This document shows, in pieces, positions 17,292 through 61,470 of a stretch of DNA of 64,000 bases. The translations under genes and the position numbers were made by a program. The DNA comes from Pseudogulbenkiania ferrooxidans 2002 (GTDB lineage: Bacteria; Pseudomonadota; Gammaproteobacteria; Burkholderiales; Chromobacteriaceae). The DNA lies in NCBI RefSeq assembly GCF_000174355.1, contig NZ_ACIS01000007.1:186001-250000 (forward strand), read 5' to 3'. The notes beneath the pieces were generated by a model. That model did no database searches. It saw only the letters and a list, made by a program, of their open reading frames with translations, and had not been told where the DNA came from. The first letter of the stretch is position 1, and every line of letters starts with the position of its first letter.

Positions 17292-18914
17292 TCAGCAGCG
17301 GAACGCAGCCACGGCGAAGTTGAGGCCGTGCGCGCTCTGGGCCAGCTGGTCGGCGGCGCTGGCGGTGGCGTCCACCGTCTGCTGGTTGGCTTCGGTCATG
17401 CTGGCCACCACCTCGATGCGCTGCGCGATATCGCGCATCGCCTGCTGCTGCTCCGTCAGCGACAGCGTGATGCCGTCGATGTGCTCGGCGATGCGCCCGG
17501 TGTTGTCACGGATGCCGCTGATGGCCTGGCTCGCCGAGCGCGTCTGCGCCACGCCTTCGGCGGACGCCGCGACGCTGGCCCGCATCAGCGTCACCACGTC
17601 CTGCATGCCGGCGTGGATGGTGCCGATCTGTTGCGATATTTCCACCGTCGCCAGGCCGGTGCGTTCCGCCAGCTTGCGCACCTCGTCGGCCACCACGGCG
17701 AAACCCCGCCCCTGTTCGCCGGCGCGCGCCGCCTCGATGGCGGCGTTGAGCGCCAGCAGGTTGGTCTGGTCGGCGATGTCGTGGATGGTGCGGGTAATGG
17801 TGGCGATGGCGTCGGTCTGCTGCTGCAGCGCCTCGATCGCCTGCGCGGTGCCGCCGATGCGTTCGGCCACCGCGCCGATCTCGTCGGCGGCGGCGTGGAT
17901 CAGGTGCTCGCACTCGCCGACCACCTGGCCGGCGTCCAGCGCCTCGGTGCCGACGTCGCGGCTCTGCTGGCCGAGCTGCGAGATGCTTTGCAGCACCTCC
18001 TCCACCGCCACCGCCATGGTGCGCGTGGCCTCGTTCTGGGTGTGCGAGCTGTGCTGCACATCGTGTGCCGATCGGGTCAGCAAGCCGACGCTGCCCTTCA
18101 CTTCGCCCGCCATGCGGTGAATCTGTCCGGTGGTGTCGCGTAGCTGCTGCTGCATCTCGGCCAGGGCCGCCAGCAGGCTGCCCTGCCGGGTCGCGGGGAG
18201 CGGCTGGGACAGGTCGCCGCCGGCGATGCGCTGCGTCAGGGCGACGGCCAGGGCCGGCTCGCCGCCCAAGAGGCCGAACACACGGCGATACAGCCAGATC
18301 CCGCCGCCCACCACCAGCAGCACCAGCAGCGTGCCCAGCACGATGGCGAGCTGGCGTGCCTGCAGCAGCTGCCGTTCGTCGTCGCCGATGGTGGCGGCCC
18401 GAGCCTGCTCCAGCTGCTTCTCCAGGTCGTCCAGGGCGTGGGTGAGGGCCTCGGCACGGTCGTCGAAGCCGCTGCCCTTGGCCTTCATGATCAGGTTGCC
18501 GGCCTCGCGGCCGTCGCGCACGTAGACCTCGGCCATCTGCTTGCCGACCAGGTAGAACTGTTCCACCAGCGGCTTGATCTGCTGCGCCGCCGGGGCCTGT
18601 TCCTGGCTCAGTGCCGCGATCTGGTCGAGATCGCGGTTCACCGCGCGGAAGTGGGTCGCGGCGTCGGCAAAGCCGTCGCGCTCGCCGGTGGCGCAGACGT
18701 CGGTGAGAAACTGCTGGATCTGCACCACGTGATAGCGCGCTTCCTTCATGGCCCCGGCCAGCACGTTGGTCACCTGGTGTTCGGTGCGGCTGGCCTGGTA
18801 CAGCCGGTTCAGGGAGGCGACCATCGCCACGCCTTGCGCCAGCAGCAGGGCGATGGTGACGGCGATGAAGCTGATCAGGATCGGGCGCAGGCGGCGGGAG
18901 GAAGCAGGACGCAT
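17292..18914 (-). CDS. Methyl-accepting chemotaxis protein
   Basis: 540-residue chemoreceptor. TM1 is near residues 12-33 ([20 protein letters not shown]), followed by a helical periplasmic sensor of about 150 residues, then TM2 near 188-208 ([20 protein letters not shown]), a HAMP-like linker and the long cytoplasmic coiled coil. The hairpin tip holds the highly conserved [20 protein letters not shown], which contacts CheA/CheW. No C-terminal NWETF-type pentapeptide is present (ends AAFRC), so adaptation may depend on other receptors. No che genes are nearby. Ligand unknown. Confidence 0.94.
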
Positions 18915-20761: not shown

Positions 20762-22393
20762 TCAGACGCGGAAGCGCCGTACGCTGTGGCCGAGCTGGTG
20801 CGCCAGTTCGACCAGCTGCGTGACGCCGCCGGCGAGGCTTTCCGCCACCGCCGCGCTCTGCTCGGCGGCACCGGCCACGCACTCCATGCTGCCGGCGATG
20901 TCGCGGCTGGCGACGTGCTGTTGCTGCATCGCGCTGGCGATGCCCTGCGCCTGGTCGCGCGAGGCCTGCGCCGCGGTCTCGTTGCGCTTGAGGCCGTCGC
21001 CCACGCTCTCGACGTAGCGGCGGCTGCTCGCCAGCGCCGCCAGGCCTTCGGCGATGGACGCTTCCAGGGTGTGCGACTGGCTGTCGAGCAGCAGCGTGAC
21101 GCGGTCGATCTCGTTGGCCGAAGCCGCCGACTTTTCCGCCAGCTTGCGCACCTCGTCGGCCACCACGGCGAAGCCGCGCCCCTGCTCGCCGGCGCGCGCC
21201 GCCTCGATCGCGGCGTTGAGCGCCAAGAGGTTGGTCTGGTCGGCGATGTCGCGCACCTCGCTGGTCATGCCGGCGATGTCGCGGCTCTTGGCGAGGAAGG
21301 CGCCGACCAGCTCGGCGGTGCGGCCCACCACCGCTTCCACCCGCCCCACCTCGTCCACCAGGGTGGCGAGCTGCGCCGTGCCCTGGCGGCTGCTCGCCAG
21401 CGCATGGTCCGCCGCCTGGTGCATGGCGTCGCTGACGTCGGCCACCGAAGCTACGCTGACCGACAGCTCCTCGATGGAACCGGCCGATTCGGCCGAGGCC
21501 CGCGACTGCTCGCGCGCCGCGCCCAGGAGCTGCGCCGACATCTGCGCCAGCGTCTCGGCCAGCCGCTCCAGTTCGCCAGCGCTGTGTTGCACCGTCGCCA
21601 CGCTGCTGGCGAGGTTGCCGCTCATCTGCTGCATGGCGCCCAGCACCTGGCCGGTCTCGTCGCGTCCTGCGGGCGGCAGCGTGACACTGAGGTCGCCGCC
21701 GGCGATGGCGCGTACCGCGCCGACCATGCGCCGCATCGGCACCGTGATGCCGCGGGTGATCAGCCAGCCGGCCAGCAGGCTCAGCAGGATGATGCCGCCG
21801 CCGGCGCCAAGGCCGATCCATTTGGCCTGGGCGTAGGCCCGCGCGGCGTCGTCCAGCGCGGCGCGCGTCCTGGCCTGTTCCGCGGCGATCAGCGCTTCCA
21901 GCGCCTCGCGCCAGGGGCGCACGGCGGGGATCAACTGCGCGTTCATCACCGCGATGGCGCCGGGCACGTCGTTGGCGAGCCCGAGCTGCATCATGCGGTC
22001 GATCACCGGTTCGGCCTGGCGGCGCTGGCGGGCCGCCTGCTCCAGCAGCGCCCGCTCCGCGGCGCCGGGGGTGTAGCGCTGCCAGTGTTGCTCCAGTTCG
22101 TGCAGCGTGGCGTCGTAGTCGAGGCGTGCCGTGGCCATCTTGGCGACGGCCTGACGCTTGCTGGGCTCATCCGGAAACATCACCGCGTCGCGGTAGACGG
22201 TGCGCTGGCTTTGCAGATTGTAGGTAAGGCGGGTGGTCAGCTCGACGGTGCGGTTGTGGTCGAGCGCCACCTCGTCGAGATGATCGCGCAGCCGGCTAAG
22301 ACCGGTGAGCTGGACCGCCAGCAGCAGCGCCACCAGCAGGGTCATGCCGCCGAAGCCGAGTGCCAGCCGCTGGCCGATACGGAGATGGTTCAT
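20762..22393 (-). CDS. Methyl-accepting chemotaxis protein (four-helix-bundle sensor)
   Basis: 543-residue chemoreceptor starting [14 protein letters not shown] at 22393. TM1 is near residues 13-30, followed by a periplasmic 4HB_MCP-type helical domain, TM2 ([20 protein letters not shown]) near residue 190, a HAMP domain ([22 protein letters not shown]) and the signalling domain with [20 protein letters not shown]. The C-terminus ends in RRFRV without a CheR-docking pentapeptide. A TTG-type extension to 22471 is ignored. It is related to, but clearly not a recent copy of, the receptor at 17292. Ligand unknown. Confidence 0.94.
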
Positions 22394-34723: not shown

Positions 34724-35682
34724 TCGCCGTGGCCGAACAACGCAATTCACCGTGGCCGGTCGTCCTGTCGCTGCTGCTGCACGCCACGGTGGTGCTGCTG
34801 CTGGTGCTGGGCGGACTGAGCTCGACCGACAAGCCGCAGGACGCCCCGGTCGCCGTCGAACTGTGGAGCAGCGCGCCGCCGCCTCCGCCGCAGGCGCCGA
34901 GCGTGACCGTGCCGCAGCCGGTGGCACGCCCGCAGCCGGAAGTGCCCAAGGCCGCGCCGGCGCCGGTCGAGCCGCCGCGCGCCGAGGTCAACCTCGGCGA
35001 GAAACGCAAGCCGCTGCCGCCGGTGAAGAAGCCGGAACCCAAGCCGGAACCCAAGCCGGAGCCGAAACCCGAACCGAAACCCGAACCGAAACCCGAACCG
35101 AAGCGCGAAGCCAAGCCGGAGGTGGTGAAGCAGGCCAAGCCGCAGCCGGCACCCAAGCCGGTCGAGAAGGCCCCACCGGTGAAAACCGCCAAGGCCGACA
35201 GCGTGCCCGACAAGCATGCCGAGAAGAAGGCGGCGGCGCTGCCGCCGGGCAAGGGCAGCAAGGCGGCGCCGCGCTACAACCCGGAAGCCGACGACCTGCT
35301 GGCCGATCTTGGCAGCAGCAACACCACCAAGAAGGGCAACGCCCGCAGCGACCAGGCCGGCCAGAAAACCGGCGTGGTCGGCGGTTCGGCCAACGGCACG
35401 TCGCTCAACCTAGACGGCTACGCCAGCAAGGTCCAGGCCAAGGTGAAGCCGCTGGTGCAGGTTCCGCCCGAGCTGTCGGGCAACCCCAAGGCGGTGGTGC
35501 AGGTGACGCTGCTGCCGTCGCTGGAAGTCCGCGCGGTGCGCCTGCTGGCGTCGAGCGGCAATACGGCCTACGACGAGGCGGTGCAGCGCGCGATCTGGGA
35601 GGCGAAGGTCTTCCCGTCGCTGCCGGCCGGCGCCAGCTTTACCGATTTCCGCCAGCTCAAGCTGGAATTCCGCCCCCATTGA
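34720..35682 (+). CDS. tolA: Tol-Pal system protein TolA
   Basis: 320-residue periplasm-spanning protein. TM near residues 13-35 (VVLSLLLHATVVLLLVLGG) contains the S-x-x-x-H motif that interacts with TolQ/R. A Pro/Lys/Glu-rich spacer includes six or more KPEP units at nucleotides about 35026-35106, and the C-terminal TonB/TolA-type domain starts near residue 230 (GYASKVQAKVKPLVQVPPEL). The spacer is a Pro-rich type rather than the long helical TolA-II of enterobacteria. Translationally coupled to tolR. Confidence 0.93.
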   Translation: MIAVAEQRNSPWPVVLSLLLHATVVLLLVLGGLSSTDKPQDAPVAVELWSSAPPPPPQAPSVTVPQPVARPQPEVPKAAPAPVEPPRAEVNLGEKRKPLPPVKKPEPKPEPKPEPKPEPKPEPKPEPKREAKPEVVKQAKPQPAPKPVEKAPPVKTAKADSVPDKHAEKKAAALPPGKGSKAAPRYNPEADDLLADLGSSNTTKKGNARSDQAGQKTGVVGGSANGTSLNLDGYASKVQAKVKPLVQVPPELSGNPKAVVQVTLLPSLEVRAVRLLASSGNTAYDEAVQRAIWEAKVFPSLPAGASFTDFRQLKLEFRPH

Positions 35683-41517: not shown

Positions 41518-41593
41518 ATGATGGGGTACCGGCTGCCGCCGGCGCCGGGCCTCTGTCATACTGGACGGCGTGCCGCTTTCCGACGGAAACCCG

Positions 41594-42175
41594 ATGACCG
41601 TGCCGCAACCCACCCTGTCCACCGCCCGCCTCTTGCTGATCCCGGCCGACCCTTCGTGGGCGCTGGCGCTGCTCGACTACCAGCACCGCAACCGCGAGCA
41701 TCTGGCGCGCTGGGAGCCGCGTGGCGGAGACATGTTCTACAGCGAACTGTACTGGACCATGCGCCTGCGCCAGCGCTGCCGTGACTGGCAGGACGGGCGC
41801 GGCGCGGCGTTCCTGCTGGTGCGCGAAGGCACGCCGGGGCGGGTGGCCGGCACCGTAACCCTGTCCAATATCGTGCGCGGCAGCTTCCAGGCTTGCCATC
41901 TCGGGTACAACCTGGACCAGGCTGAGCAGGGGCGCGGGCTGATGCACGAGGCGCTGCGGGCGGTCATCGCCTGTGCTTTCGAGACGCTGCAGCTGCACCG
42001 CATCCAGGCCAATTACCAGCCGGAGAATGTGCGCAGCGCGGCGGTGCTGCGCCGCCTCGGCTTCGTCGTCGAGGGCCACGCCAAGGACTACCTGTTTCTC
42101 GACGGCGCCTGGCGCGATCACGTGCTGACGGCGCTGACCAACCCCGATTTCGACCCGGCGCGCATGCTGGCCTGA
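41594..42175 (+). CDS. GNAT acetyltransferase, RimJ/RimL-like
   Basis: 193-residue N-acetyltransferase. The acetyl-CoA binding loop is HLGYNLDQAEQGRGLMHEAL (R/Q-x-x-G-x-G/A form) near residue 105, and the C-terminal QLHRIQANYQPENVRSAAVL with LGFVVEGHAKDYLF is typical of the Rim-type group that modifies ribosomal-protein N-termini. The ATG at 41594 is preceded by a weak GGAAA; a GTG at 41570 is the alternative. The substrate is not certain. The last 170 bp of the gene are the source of a downstream imperfect copy (see the tandem duplication). Confidence 0.88.
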   Translation: MTVPQPTLSTARLLLIPADPSWALALLDYQHRNREHLARWEPRGGDMFYSELYWTMRLRQRCRDWQDGRGAAFLLVREGTPGRVAGTVTLSNIVRGSFQACHLGYNLDQAEQGRGLMHEALRAVIACAFETLQLHRIQANYQPENVRSAAVLRRLGFVVEGHAKDYLFLDGAWRDHVLTALTNPDFDPARMLA

Positions 42176-43740
42176 GCCGGCGGCGCGCCTTTGCCGTTCT
42201 GGAGCCCGGACGATGCAAGCCTTTACCCTCGACGCCGCCGACGGCGAAACGATCCGTGGCTGGTGTTGGCTGCCCGCCACGGCGCCGCGTGCGGTGGTGC
42301 TGATCGTGCACGGCATGGGAGAGCACGCGGCCCGTTACCGGCGCTTTGCCGACAGCTTGGCCGAAGCCGGTTACGCGGTGTACGCGCACGATCAGCGCGG
42401 CCATGGCGAGCGGCCGCGGCGGCGCGGCTGGTTCGCCGCCGAACAGGGCTGGAACAAGGTGGTGGACGACGTCGATACGGTGCGCGCCCACGCCGCGGCG
42501 CGGCACCCCGTGGTGCCGCTGCTGCTGTTCGGCCACAGCATGGGCAGTTTCGTGTCGCGCGCCTACCTGCTGCGTCACGGCCAGGGCTTGGCCGGGCTGG
42601 TGCTGTCGGCCACCGGCTACCGCCAGGCCTGGCTGGCGCGGCTGATGCGCCGCGTCGCCGGCCTGGCGGGCCGGCTGGGGGGACGGCTGCAGCCGAACGC
42701 CTTCATGAGCCGGCTGGTGTTCGGCAGTTTCAACCTGTCGTTTCTGCCGGCGCGTACCGCGGTGGACTGGTTGAGCCGCGATGCGGCCGAGGTCGATCGC
42801 TACCTGGCCGATCCCTTGTGCGGCTTTCACTTTACCCCGGCGCTGTGGCAGGACCTGTTCGGCGGCATCATCGCGCTGATGCCAGGCCAAATTCCCAGCC
42901 CGGAGAATGTGCGGCAGCGCGGCGGTGCTGCGCCCCCCTCGGCTTCGTCGTCGAAGGCCACCCCAAGGACTCCTGTTTCCCGACGGCCCTGGGCGATCAC
43001 GTGCTGACGGCCCTGCCCAACCCCCATTTCGCCCCGCGCGCATGCTGCCTGAACCGGCGGCGGGCCCTCCTGTCCCGGAGCCGGCGAAGCAAGTTTTCCC
43101 TCGCGCGCGAGCCAAACGATCCGTGGCTGGTGTTGGCTGCCCGCACGGCCCGCTGCGGGGTGCTGATCGTGCACGGCATGGGAGAGCACGCGCCCGTTAC
43201 CGGCGCTTTGCCGACAGCTTGGCCGAAGCCGGTTACGCGGTGTACGCGCACGATCAGCGCGGCCATGGCGAGCGGCCGCGGCGGCGCGGCTGGTTCGCCG
43301 CCGAACAGGGCTGGAACAAGGTGGTGGACGACGTCGATACGGTGCGCGCCCACGCCGCGGCGCGGCACCCCGTGGTGCCGCTGCTGCTGTTCGGCCACAG
43401 CATGGGCAGTTTCGTGTCGCGCGCCTACCTGCTGCGTCACGGCCAGGGCTTGGCCGGGCTGGTGCTGTCGGCCACCGGCTACCGCCAGGCCTGGCTGGCG
43501 CGGCTGATGCGCCGCGTCGCCGGCCTGGCGGGCCGGCTGGGGGGACGGCTGCAGCCGAACGCCTTCATGAGCCGGCTGGTGTTCGGCAGTTTCAACCTGT
43601 CGTTTCTGCCGGCGCGTACCGCGGTGGACTGGTTGAGCCGCGATGCGGCCGAGGTCGATCGCTACCTGGCCGATCCCTTGTGCGGCTTTCACTTTACCCC
43701 GGCGCTGTGGCAGGACCTGTTCGGCGGCATCATCGCGCTG
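42005..43740. repeat. Tandem duplication of about 0.86 kb, probably an assembly artefact
   Basis: The segment about 42005-42878 is followed by a second copy at about 42885-43740. From roughly 42331 onward the copies are identical for about 0.55 kb at an offset of 862 bp. The first 330 bp of the second copy (42885-43212) is a degraded version of the GNAT 3' end and the hydrolase 5' end, with substitutions and single-base indels packed together. Joining 42878 to 43741 restores one normal hydrolase gene. The pattern, perfect identity next to concentrated errors, fits a low-quality read end placed in the assembly, though a recent real duplication cannot be excluded. Confidence 0.75.
42213..43007 (+). 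pseudogene. Alpha/beta hydrolase, first copy, C-terminus lost
   Basis: Monoacylglycerol-lipase/lysophospholipase-like hydrolase (Hydrolase_4). The N-terminal part is normal: VVLIVHGMGEHAARY oxyanion region near residue 30 and nucleophile elbow LLFGHSMGSFVSR with Ser near residue 110. After FGGIIAL (residue 222) the frame enters the duplicated GNAT remnant (MPGQIPSPENVRQ...) and continues for 42 meaningless residues. The catalytic Asp and His that should follow are missing, so this copy as written is inactive. If the duplication is removed, the gene becomes 308 residues (42213-42878 joined to 43741-44001). Confidence 0.75.
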
Positions 43741-44001
43741 GAGGCCGGCGAGCAGCGCGGCCGCAACCTGCCGCGTTGCCCGGTGCTGCTGATGACCGGC
43801 AGCCGCGATCCGGTCAGCCTGGGGCACTGGGCGCTGCGGCAGCTGGCGCGCCGCTACCGGCGCGCCGGGCTCGACGACATCACGCTGCGGGTCTACCCCG
43901 GCGGGCGTCACGAGATGCTCAACGAAACCAATCGCGAGGCGGTGACCGCCGACATCCTGGCCTGGATGGAGCGTGTCGGCGTGGCCGGACGGACCGGCTA
44001 G
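42907..44001 (+). pseudogene. Alpha/beta hydrolase, second copy, N-terminus corrupted
   Basis: Contains the intact region from RYRRFADSLAEAGYAVYAHD to the natural C-terminus, including the nucleophile Ser (GHSMG), the catalytic Asp in MTGSRDPVSLG and the His in GRHEMLNETN. The first 95 or so residues of the open frame (MCGSAAVLRPPRLRRRRPP...) are an out-of-frame reading of the degraded GNAT/hydrolase copy. No proper start codon lies near the true domain start. Together with the first copy it represents one real gene. Confidence 0.75.
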
Positions 44002-54310: not shown

Positions 54311-54323
54311 GCCCTCCTGCGCT

Positions 54324-54468
54324 AAGAACCTGTTCCCGCTCTTGCTGCGCATCCCTGATCGGGGCTCATGTGCTGCTCGGAATCCTCATGTACTGCAGTA
54401 CATTCCGGTTCCTGCGCTGCTCTTCACCCCGCTGAGGGCTGCTCGCGACAGATCGTGAACAGGTTCTC
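54324..54468. mobile_element. MITE-like palindromic element, contains an R1 repeat core
   Basis: Terminal inverted repeats GAACCTGTTC (54326-54335) and GAACAGGTTC (54457-54466) are perfect over 10 bp, and imperfect pairing continues inwards. The centre (about 54370-54415) carries GCTGCTCGGAATCCTCATG and ACATTCCGGTTCCTGCGCT, shared with the copy at 61350-61400. No transposase is encoded. The right end touches the stop codon of the ATPase gene, so the element appears to have landed there. Confidence 0.6.
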
Positions 54469-56803
54469 AGAGCCCGATACGCGCCCGCTTGAGCAGCGCC
54501 GAGTTGACGATCACCGACAGCGAACTGAGCGCCATCGCCGCCGCGGCCAGGATGGGGTTGAGCAGGCCCAGCGCCGCGACGGGAATCCCGATGCTGTTGT
54601 AGATGAAGGCCCAGAACAGGTTCTGCTTGATCTTGCCCATGGTGGCGCGCGACAGCTGGATGGACGCCACCACGTCGCGCACGTCGTTCCGGATCAGGAT
54701 GATGCCGCCGGTCTCCTTGGCCACGTCGGAACCGGAACCGATGGCGATGCCGATGTCGGCGGTCGCCAGGGCCGGCGCATCGTTGACGCCGTCGCCCACC
54801 ATCGCCACCACCTCGCCCGCGTCGCGCAGCTGGCGGATCACCTTGGCCTTGTCCTCCGGCAGCACCTCGGCGATCACCTGCTCGATGCCGATCTGCCGGG
54901 CGATCGCCTCGGCGGTGCGCCGGTTATCGCCGGTCAGCAGCACGACCTTGATCCGCCGCGCCGCGAGGGCGGCCACGGCCTGCGCGGCCTCCGGCTTCAG
55001 CGTGTCCGCCACGGCGATCACGCCGATCAGGCGGCCGTTGTCCCCCACCAGCATGGCGGTCTTGCCGTCCGCCTCCAGGCGCGCCAGGGTCTCTGCCGCG
55101 GCGTCGATCGCGATGTTTTCCCGGGCGAACAGGCGGCGGTTGCCGAGCAGCACCGTGCGCCCCTCCACCACGCCCTGGATGCCGTGGCCGGCGATGCCGG
55201 TGATGGCGCCGGCCGGCGGCAGCGGCAGGCCGCGCTGCCGTGCCGCCCTTACCATGGCCTGCCCCAGCGGGTGTTCCGAGCCGGTTTCCACTGCGGCGGC
55301 CAGCCCCAGCACCTGCGCCGCGTCGTGAGTGTCGAACGGCACGATATCGGTGACGTTCGGCTCGCCGCGCGTCAGGGTGCCGGTCTTGTCGAACACGATG
55401 GTGGTGAGCTTTTCCGCCCGCTCCAGCACCTCGCCGCCGCGGATCAGGATGCCGCCGTCCGCCCCCTTGCCGACGCCAACCATCAGCGCCGCCGGCGTGG
55501 CGATGCCCAGCGCGCACGGGCAGGAAATGATCAGCACCGCGATGAAGGCCAGCAGCCCTTGCGGGAAGTGGCCGGCCAGCCACCAGCCCAGGAAGGCGAG
55601 CACGGCGACGCCGACCACCGCCGGCACGAAATAGCCGGTGACGGTGTCGGCCAGGCGCTGGATCTGCGCGGTGCTGGCCTGGGCCTCTTCCACCATGCGG
55701 ATGATCTGCGCCAGCGCGGTGTCGGCGCCGATGCGGGTGGCGCGGAAGGCGAACACGCCGGCGCCGTTCAGGGTGCCGCCGATCACCGGTGCGCCGGGGC
55801 GCTTCGCCACCGGCATCGATTCGCCGGTGAGCATCGACTCGTCCACGTTGGACTGTCCTTCGATCACCTCGCCGTCGGTCGGCACCTTCTCGCCGGGCTT
55901 CACCAGCACCGTTTCGCCCACCATGATGCTCTCGGCCGGGATGTCGGTTTCCACGCCGTCGCGCCGCACGTGCGCCGTGGCCGGTTTGAGGTCGAGCAGA
56001 TGGCGCACCGCCGCCGACGACTTCTTCTTGATGATCTCCTCCATGTAGCGCCCGAGCAGCACGAAGGCGATGATCACCGCCGACACTTCGAAATAGACGT
56101 CGCGCTCGGCCACCTTGACCGGCAGGATGGCCGGGAAGAACAGCACCGCCACGCTGTAGAAGTAGGCCACCGAGGTGCCCAGCGCGATCAGGAAATCCAT
56201 GTTGATGTTGCGGGTGCGGATGGCGTTCCAGGCGCCCTTGTAGAAGCTCCAGCCGCCGATGAACTGCACCGGCGTGACCAGCAGGAACAGCCACATGCCC
56301 CAGGTCAGCCAGGGCAGGGCCGGAATCGGCGCCCATGACAGCAGCGTGGCGCCGGCGGCGAGCGCCAGGAAGGCGCCGGCGCGCAGCATCGCGAGCGCCA
56401 GCACGCCGGTCAGCGCGATGGTGACCCGCGTCTTCATCGCCTTCAGTTCGTGCTCGGGCGACTCGAAGGTGCGCAGGCAGCTGTCGCTGCAGAAGTAATA
56501 GGTACGGCCGCCGCGCTGGGTGCTGAGCGCGCTGGCCTTGTCCACCAGCATGCCGCAGATCGGGTCCTTGGCACGGCCGCTGGCACCGCTTGCTGCGGCC
56601 GGCGGCATCGCCGCGGCCGCGGGCGGGGGCGTGCTGGCGCCACCGGTGGCGCTAACGGGGGCGTAGCGCTCCGGCGCGGCGGCGAACTGCTGCTGGCAGT
56701 GCGCCGAGCAGAACCAGTAGCGTTGCCCGCGGTACTCCTGGCTGGACTGGGCCGTGGCCGGGTCGATCTGCATGCCGCAGACCGGGTCGCTGACGCGTGC
56801 CAT
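54467..56803 (-). CDS. Copper-type P1B ATPase with two N-terminal YHS domains
   Basis: 778-residue heavy-metal exporter in the inner membrane. In place of the usual GMTC metal-binding domains it has two YHS domains ([15 protein letters not shown] near residue 4 and [15 protein letters not shown] near residue 80), each followed by a cysteine pair (FCSAHC, FCSDSC). Eight TM helices are expected; the ion site is the CPC motif in [15 protein letters not shown], the phosphorylated Asp is in [10 protein letters not shown], the HP motif is SEHPLGQ and the hinge [10 protein letters not shown]. The MALSSLSVI motif in the last helix indicates Cu+. The ATG at 56803 (MARVSDPV) is preferred because AAAGGAGA lies too close to the one at 56809. 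Last gene of a three-gene operon. Confidence 0.92.
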
Positions 56804-61316: not shown

Positions 61317-61430
61317 TAGGCGGCTGCGCCTTCGCAGTTTGAGCGTCGGCGCTGCTCGGAATCCTCATGTACTCCGTGTACATTCCGGTTCCTGCGCTCC
61401 GGCGACACTCAACCTGCCTTGGCTCGCTCA
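61317..61430. repeat. Copy of dispersed intergenic repeat R1
   Basis: Contains AGGCGGCTGCGCCTTCGCAG, GCTGCTCGGAATCCTCATG, GTACATTCCGGTTCCTGCG and CGGCGACACTCAACCTGC. The centre is a loose hairpin (CGGAAT...ATTCCG with ATGTAC...GTACAT inside). Shares its core with 54370-54415 and most of its length with 41323-41455. Lies inside the glycerate operon between the kinase remnant and the GlcG-like gene. Confidence 0.65.
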
Positions 61431-61470
61431 CCTACTGGAATAGACTTTGTAGTTAATAATGGCTTGCCGC

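What the first reader, a model, noticed from the sequence alone, without database searches (positions are those of the whole stretch)
42005..43740. Tandem duplication that splits a hydrolase gene is probably an assembly artefact
About 0.55 kb of the two copies is identical, while the first 330 bp of the second copy is filled with substitutions and single-base indels. Real old duplications diverge evenly; real new ones are identical throughout. A cluster of errors next to perfect identity fits a poor read end. Deleting 42879-43740 restores an in-frame 308-residue hydrolase with a full Ser-Asp-His triad.
Basis: seen in the sequence. Interest (0 to 1): 0.6.

Follow-up and report, generated by a model that had tools for sequence, protein, structure and literature searches.

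The report
False gene duplication from assembly error
A stretch of about 860 bases appears twice in a row in this bacterial genome record and cuts an ordinary lipase-like enzyme gene in two, but the second copy carries the marks of badly read sequence, so the bacterium almost certainly has one intact gene and the doubling is an assembly error.

Summary
Window 42003-42878 recurs at 42882-43740. The last 548 bp of the copies are identical. The first ~330 bp of copy 2 carry 43 differences: 17 substitutions, 21 deleted and 5 inserted bases. (1) The sister species Pseudogulbenkiania subflava, ~93% identical and syntenic, has one copy and an intact 308-aa hydrolase; the other relatives' loci also hold one unbroken copy each. 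(2) In a three-way alignment every copy-copy difference is private to copy 2. No site is private to copy 1, and 13 are private to P. subflava. (3) All 17 substitutions turn a base into its immediate neighbour; natural substitutions here do so 43% of the time. Indels are ~60-fold over-represented. That looks like poor peak resolution in a read, not mutation. (4) It is the only such tandem repeat in 184 kb of this contig. The best account is that two overlapping pieces were abutted instead of merged because one had ~330 bp of poor sequence. The real locus most likely holds one intact monoacylglycerol-lipase-like hydrolase. Raw reads were not available, so this is inferred. Interest is low.

The parts
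41570..42175 (+). Upstream GNAT acetyltransferase gene (RimJ/RimL-like), intact; its 3' end is inside the duplicated stretch
   Evidence: Acetyltransf_3 E=1.4e-21; PRK10809 ribosomal S5-alanine N-acetyltransferase model 160 bits, below its cut-off of 190; ORF
42003..42878 (+). Copy 1 of the repeat (end of acetyltransferase gene plus first 222 codons of hydrolase); the faithful copy
   Evidence: No gap columns and 12 mismatches over 338 bp against P. subflava; no site private to copy 1
42213..42878 (+). First 222 codons of the alpha/beta hydrolase (N-terminus, HGMGEH motif, nucleophile Ser in GHSMGS)
42879..42881 (.). Junction between the abutted pieces
   Evidence: One match to P. subflava ends at 42878 and the next one begins at 42882
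42882..43192 (+). Corrupted head of copy 2: 17 substitutions, 21 deleted and 5 inserted bases
43193..43740 (+). Identical tail of copy 2
   Evidence: No differences from copy 1
43741..44001 (+). Last 86 codons and stop of the hydrolase (Asp in GSRDPV, His in GRHEM)
   Evidence: Same frame as copy 1 and collinear with the P. subflava orthologue
42907..44001 (+). Spurious 364-aa ORF: about 94 frame-scrambled residues followed by hydrolase; likely to be mis-annotated as a gene
   Evidence: Hydrolase_4 match starts only at residue 96, profile position 18

Best explanation
The duplication is an assembly error. Two sequence pieces that overlap by about 860 bp at this locus were placed end to end instead of being merged, because the left ~330 bp of the right-hand piece is low-quality, uncorrected sequence whose miscalls kept the overlap from being recognised. 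The chromosome most likely carries one copy: acetyltransferase gene, then one intact 308-residue alpha/beta hydrolase (Hydrolase_4, monoacylglycerol-lipase-like), then the next gene. Shown: the repeat, its lopsided error pattern, the one-copy state in relatives and the private status of all changes. Inferred: that the source was a poor read or contig end, and the true copy number in the cell.
For: 548 bp identical beside ~330 bp with 43 differing columns. Indel:substitution ratio 26:17, against 89 non-triplet gaps to roughly 3500 substitutions in the rest of the window versus P. subflava, odds ratio ~60. 17 of 17 substitutions copy an adjacent base (14 of 17 the left one); natural substitutions in the window do so 43% of the time (24% left), P about 6e-7. 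The 14 isolated substitutions all do so, and the result holds across alignment penalties, with 12 of 12 under one setting. Three-way alignment: 67 columns private to copy 2, 13 private to P. subflava, 0 private to copy 1. P. subflava has one copy and an intact 308-aa ORF; all other relatives' loci hold one full-length match. The two outer pieces of the hydrolase are in the same frame and abut at the matching residue of the orthologue. No comparable near-tandem repeat in 184 kb of the contig. The genome is a 20-contig draft.
Against: No reads, coverage or second assembly of the same species could be examined. Error density does not rise steadily to the junction but peaks at 43059-43118 (19 of 43 events), so a simple single-read decay is not shown. 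No run of N or contig edge marks the junction. Only one such artefact was seen in the 184 kb examined.
Confidence: 0.95

Rival explanations
1. A real recent tandem duplication exists in the strain, but the left part of copy 2 was badly sequenced. Two copies would be present and the differences would be false.
For: The assembly does place two copies, and the identical 548 bp is what a recent duplication would give.
Against: Needs a duplication and a sequencing failure that happens to start at the duplication junction and lie wholly in copy 2; an unmerged overlap explains both at once. The duplication would break the hydrolase, which is intact and single in every relative examined.
Confidence: 0.03
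2. An old real duplication whose second copy decayed, with the 3' two-thirds later made identical to copy 1 by gene conversion.
For: Gene conversion can leave sharp borders between identical and diverged tracts (general knowledge).
Against: All changes are private to copy 2 and none of the sites that differ from P. subflava splits the copies, so the duplication would post-date that split. Copy 2 would then need 43 changes in ~330 bp while the same stretch differs by only 12-13 between species. Indel excess and neighbour-copy substitutions do not fit the natural spectrum seen in this window.
Confidence: 0.01
3. A real duplication made by an error-prone break-repair or template-switching event that laid down clustered mutations next to the junction.
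For: Clustered changes begin at the junction, and microhomology-mediated repair can be error-prone near breakpoints (general knowledge).
Against: 13% changes over 330 bp with mostly single-base deletions and 17 of 17 neighbour-copy substitutions, peaking 180-240 bp from the junction and not at it.
Confidence: 0.01

Closest known systems
Homotype false duplication in genome assemblies (under-collapsed sequence caused by read errors; Genome Biol. 2022, PMC9516828)
   Same: One locus appears twice, one version carries accumulated sequencing errors, and the copies lie on the same scaffold.
   Different: Described there for vertebrate assemblies and diagnosed with read depth and k-mers, which could not be done here; here the genome is bacterial and the copies are directly adjacent.
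Hydrolase_4 (PF12146) alpha/beta hydrolases, monoacylglycerol lipase-like (nearest solved sequences 5o7g, 5olu, 6khk; M. tuberculosis monoglyceride lipase 6eic)
   Same: The gene that was split belongs here: GHSMGS nucleophile elbow, Asp and His in order; the P. subflava orthologue matches PF12146 at 1.2e-57 and 5o7g at 4.5e-36.
   Different: No specific equivalog model is reached, so its substrate is not settled.

Membership tests
False duplication by unmerged overlap (assembly artefact) | Two adjacent near-identical copies where close relatives have one | tested here: met
False duplication by unmerged overlap (assembly artefact) | Differences confined to one copy and of sequencing-error type | tested here: met
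   0 changes private to copy 1; indel excess; neighbour-copy substitutions
False duplication by unmerged overlap (assembly artefact) | Setting one copy's span aside leaves the ancestral gene order and reading frame | tested here: met
   Outer pieces 42213-42878 and 43741-44001 are in one frame and collinear with the 308-aa P. subflava orthologue
False duplication by unmerged overlap (assembly artefact) | Reduced read depth or no reads spanning the junction | not testable with these tools
   No reads available
Genuine tandem duplication with gene conversion | Diverged part shows natural mutation spectrum and some changes on both copies | tested here: not met
Hydrolase_4 / monoacylglycerol-lipase-like alpha/beta hydrolase (the split gene) | Profile match above curated cut-off and Ser-Asp-His residues in order | tested here: met
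   PF12146: 195 bits for the orthologue (cut-off 27), 158 and 162 bits for the two window ORFs; motif positions
Hydrolase_4 / monoacylglycerol-lipase-like alpha/beta hydrolase (the split gene) | Monoacylglycerol lipase activity | not testable with these tools
   Needs an enzyme assay

The most novel reading that the evidence does not exclude
The strain truly carries a tandem duplication that inactivates the hydrolase, with a burst of clustered indels and neighbour-templated substitutions laid down next to the junction by an error-prone repair event.
Probability: 0.01. Interest if true: 0.5.

Novelty: not a real feature. Interest (0 to 1): 0.1.

Why it matters
It matters only for the record. 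The assembly splits an intact enzyme gene, creates a spurious 364-aa ORF with a scrambled N-terminus and suggests a duplication that probably does not exist. The neighbour-copy test used here (do all substitutions turn a base into an adjacent base?) is a cheap, read-free way to tell sequencing error from divergence in old draft genomes.

Tried and rejected
Gene conversion of an old duplicate, error-prone repair, and a real duplication with a badly read copy were considered and ranked low for the reasons given under rivals. The expected steady rise of errors toward a read end was looked for and not found (peak at 43059-43118). The papers on the probable source strain (P. ferrooxidans 2002) and on NH8B are not held, so the sequencing method could not be checked. 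The P. ferrooxidans EGD-HP2 paper is held, but that assembly has 301 contigs, so it is probably not this 20-contig genome. Rfam found nothing in the window.

Full report
What is there. The window lies on contig 14 of a 20-contig, 4.23-Mb draft genome. Its nearest relative in the searched sets is Pseudogulbenkiania subflava DSM 22618, about 91-97% identical over nearly the whole window and syntenic with it, so the genome is a Pseudogulbenkiania species. My guess from memory of genome size and strain list is P. ferrooxidans 2002, but this was not verified. At 42003-43740 a stretch of ~870 bp occurs twice in direct, adjacent order. It covers the end of a GNAT acetyltransferase gene (41570-42175) and the first 222 codons of an alpha/beta hydrolase gene starting at 42213.

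Pattern of differences. Copies 1 and 2 are identical over 548 bp (42330-42877 and 43192-43739). Over the ~330 bp before that, 43 alignment columns differ: 17 substitutions, 21 deleted bases and 5 inserted bases (a start one base further left adds one substitution). The density peaks at 43059-43118 and does not rise steadily toward the junction.

Which copy is wrong. Aligned to P. subflava, copy 1 has no gap columns and 12 mismatches over 338 bp; copy 2 has 26 gap columns and 28 mismatches. In a three-way alignment there are 13 columns private to P. subflava, 67 private to copy 2 (more than 43 because MAFFT places the gaps differently) and none private to copy 1. So both copies share everything that separates the species, and every difference between them arose in copy 2. 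A real duplicate would have had to gain 43 changes in the time in which its twin gained at most about a dozen, while the adjoining 548 bp gained none.

What kind of changes. All 17 substitutions turn a base into its immediate left or right neighbour (14 the left one); 9.4 would be expected for the same spectrum at random positions. Natural substitutions between this window and P. subflava do so 43% of the time, giving P about 6e-7. The result does not depend on the aligner: of the isolated substitutions, 14 of 14 (12 of 12 under one setting) copy a neighbour across seven penalty settings. Indels are about 60-fold over-represented relative to substitutions compared with the rest of the window. 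Unresolved neighbouring peaks and dropped bases are what poor sequencing traces give; that reading of the spectrum is general knowledge, not a test of the original traces.

Relatives. P. subflava holds one copy and an intact 308-residue hydrolase between the same neighbours. The loci fetched from the other relatives (ten genomes of the same family and ten more distant ones) each hold a single full-length match; only the window gives two broken ones. The outer pieces of the window's gene, 42213-42878 and 43741-44001, are in one frame, encode 222 and 86 residues, and carry Ser (GHSMGS), Asp (GSRDPV) and His (GRHEM) in order. The orthologue matches PF12146 Hydrolase_4 at 1.2e-57 and solved alpha/beta hydrolases and monoacylglycerol lipases; no specific NCBIfam equivalog is reached.

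Control. In 184 kb of the same contig, self-comparison finds no other near-tandem long repeat of this kind; the remaining hits are dispersed or diverged repeats of 183 bp or less.

Explanation. The simplest account is that two overlapping pieces were abutted, not merged, because the leftmost ~330 bp of the right-hand one is uncorrected poor sequence. This corresponds to a homotype false duplication in the terms of PMC9516828. It explains the adjacency, the location of all errors at the start of copy 2, their type, and the one-copy state of relatives with a single event. The rivals (real duplication plus bad read, gene conversion, error-prone repair) each need extra coincidences and fit the tests less well. 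Raw reads were not available, so the final proof, read depth or PCR, is left as the next step.

Verdict. Observation confirmed, interpretation supported, not a real biological feature, low interest.

Noticed in passing
window 54318-54483: Dispersed repeat of about 150 bp whose ends pair into a long imperfect hairpin. It gives 70 BLAST places in the own genome, 63 in P. subflava, 28 in one genome of another genus of the family, and few or none in most other genomes searched; it resembles a MITE- or NEMIS-like mobile element and has no Rfam match.
   Followed up: partly
window 61351-61446: A shorter relative of the same dispersed repeat: it shares 48 bp with the 54318 element and 81-86 bp with two others on the contig.
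   Followed up: no
window 17664-17811 and 21134-21281: Two 148-bp direct copies, 88.5% identical without gaps, 3.5 kb apart.
   Followed up: no
window 35028-35120: 12-base tandem repeat (GAAGCCCGAACC, about 7.5 copies), likely coding for a Pro-Glu/Lys-rich linker.
   Followed up: no
window 42600-42800 (and copy 43460-43660): A short hydrolase segment (GRLGGRLQPNAF here, GRRGGMTTPSRG in P. subflava) differs by several compensating indels between the species; both copies share it, so it is unrelated to the artefact.
   Followed up: partly
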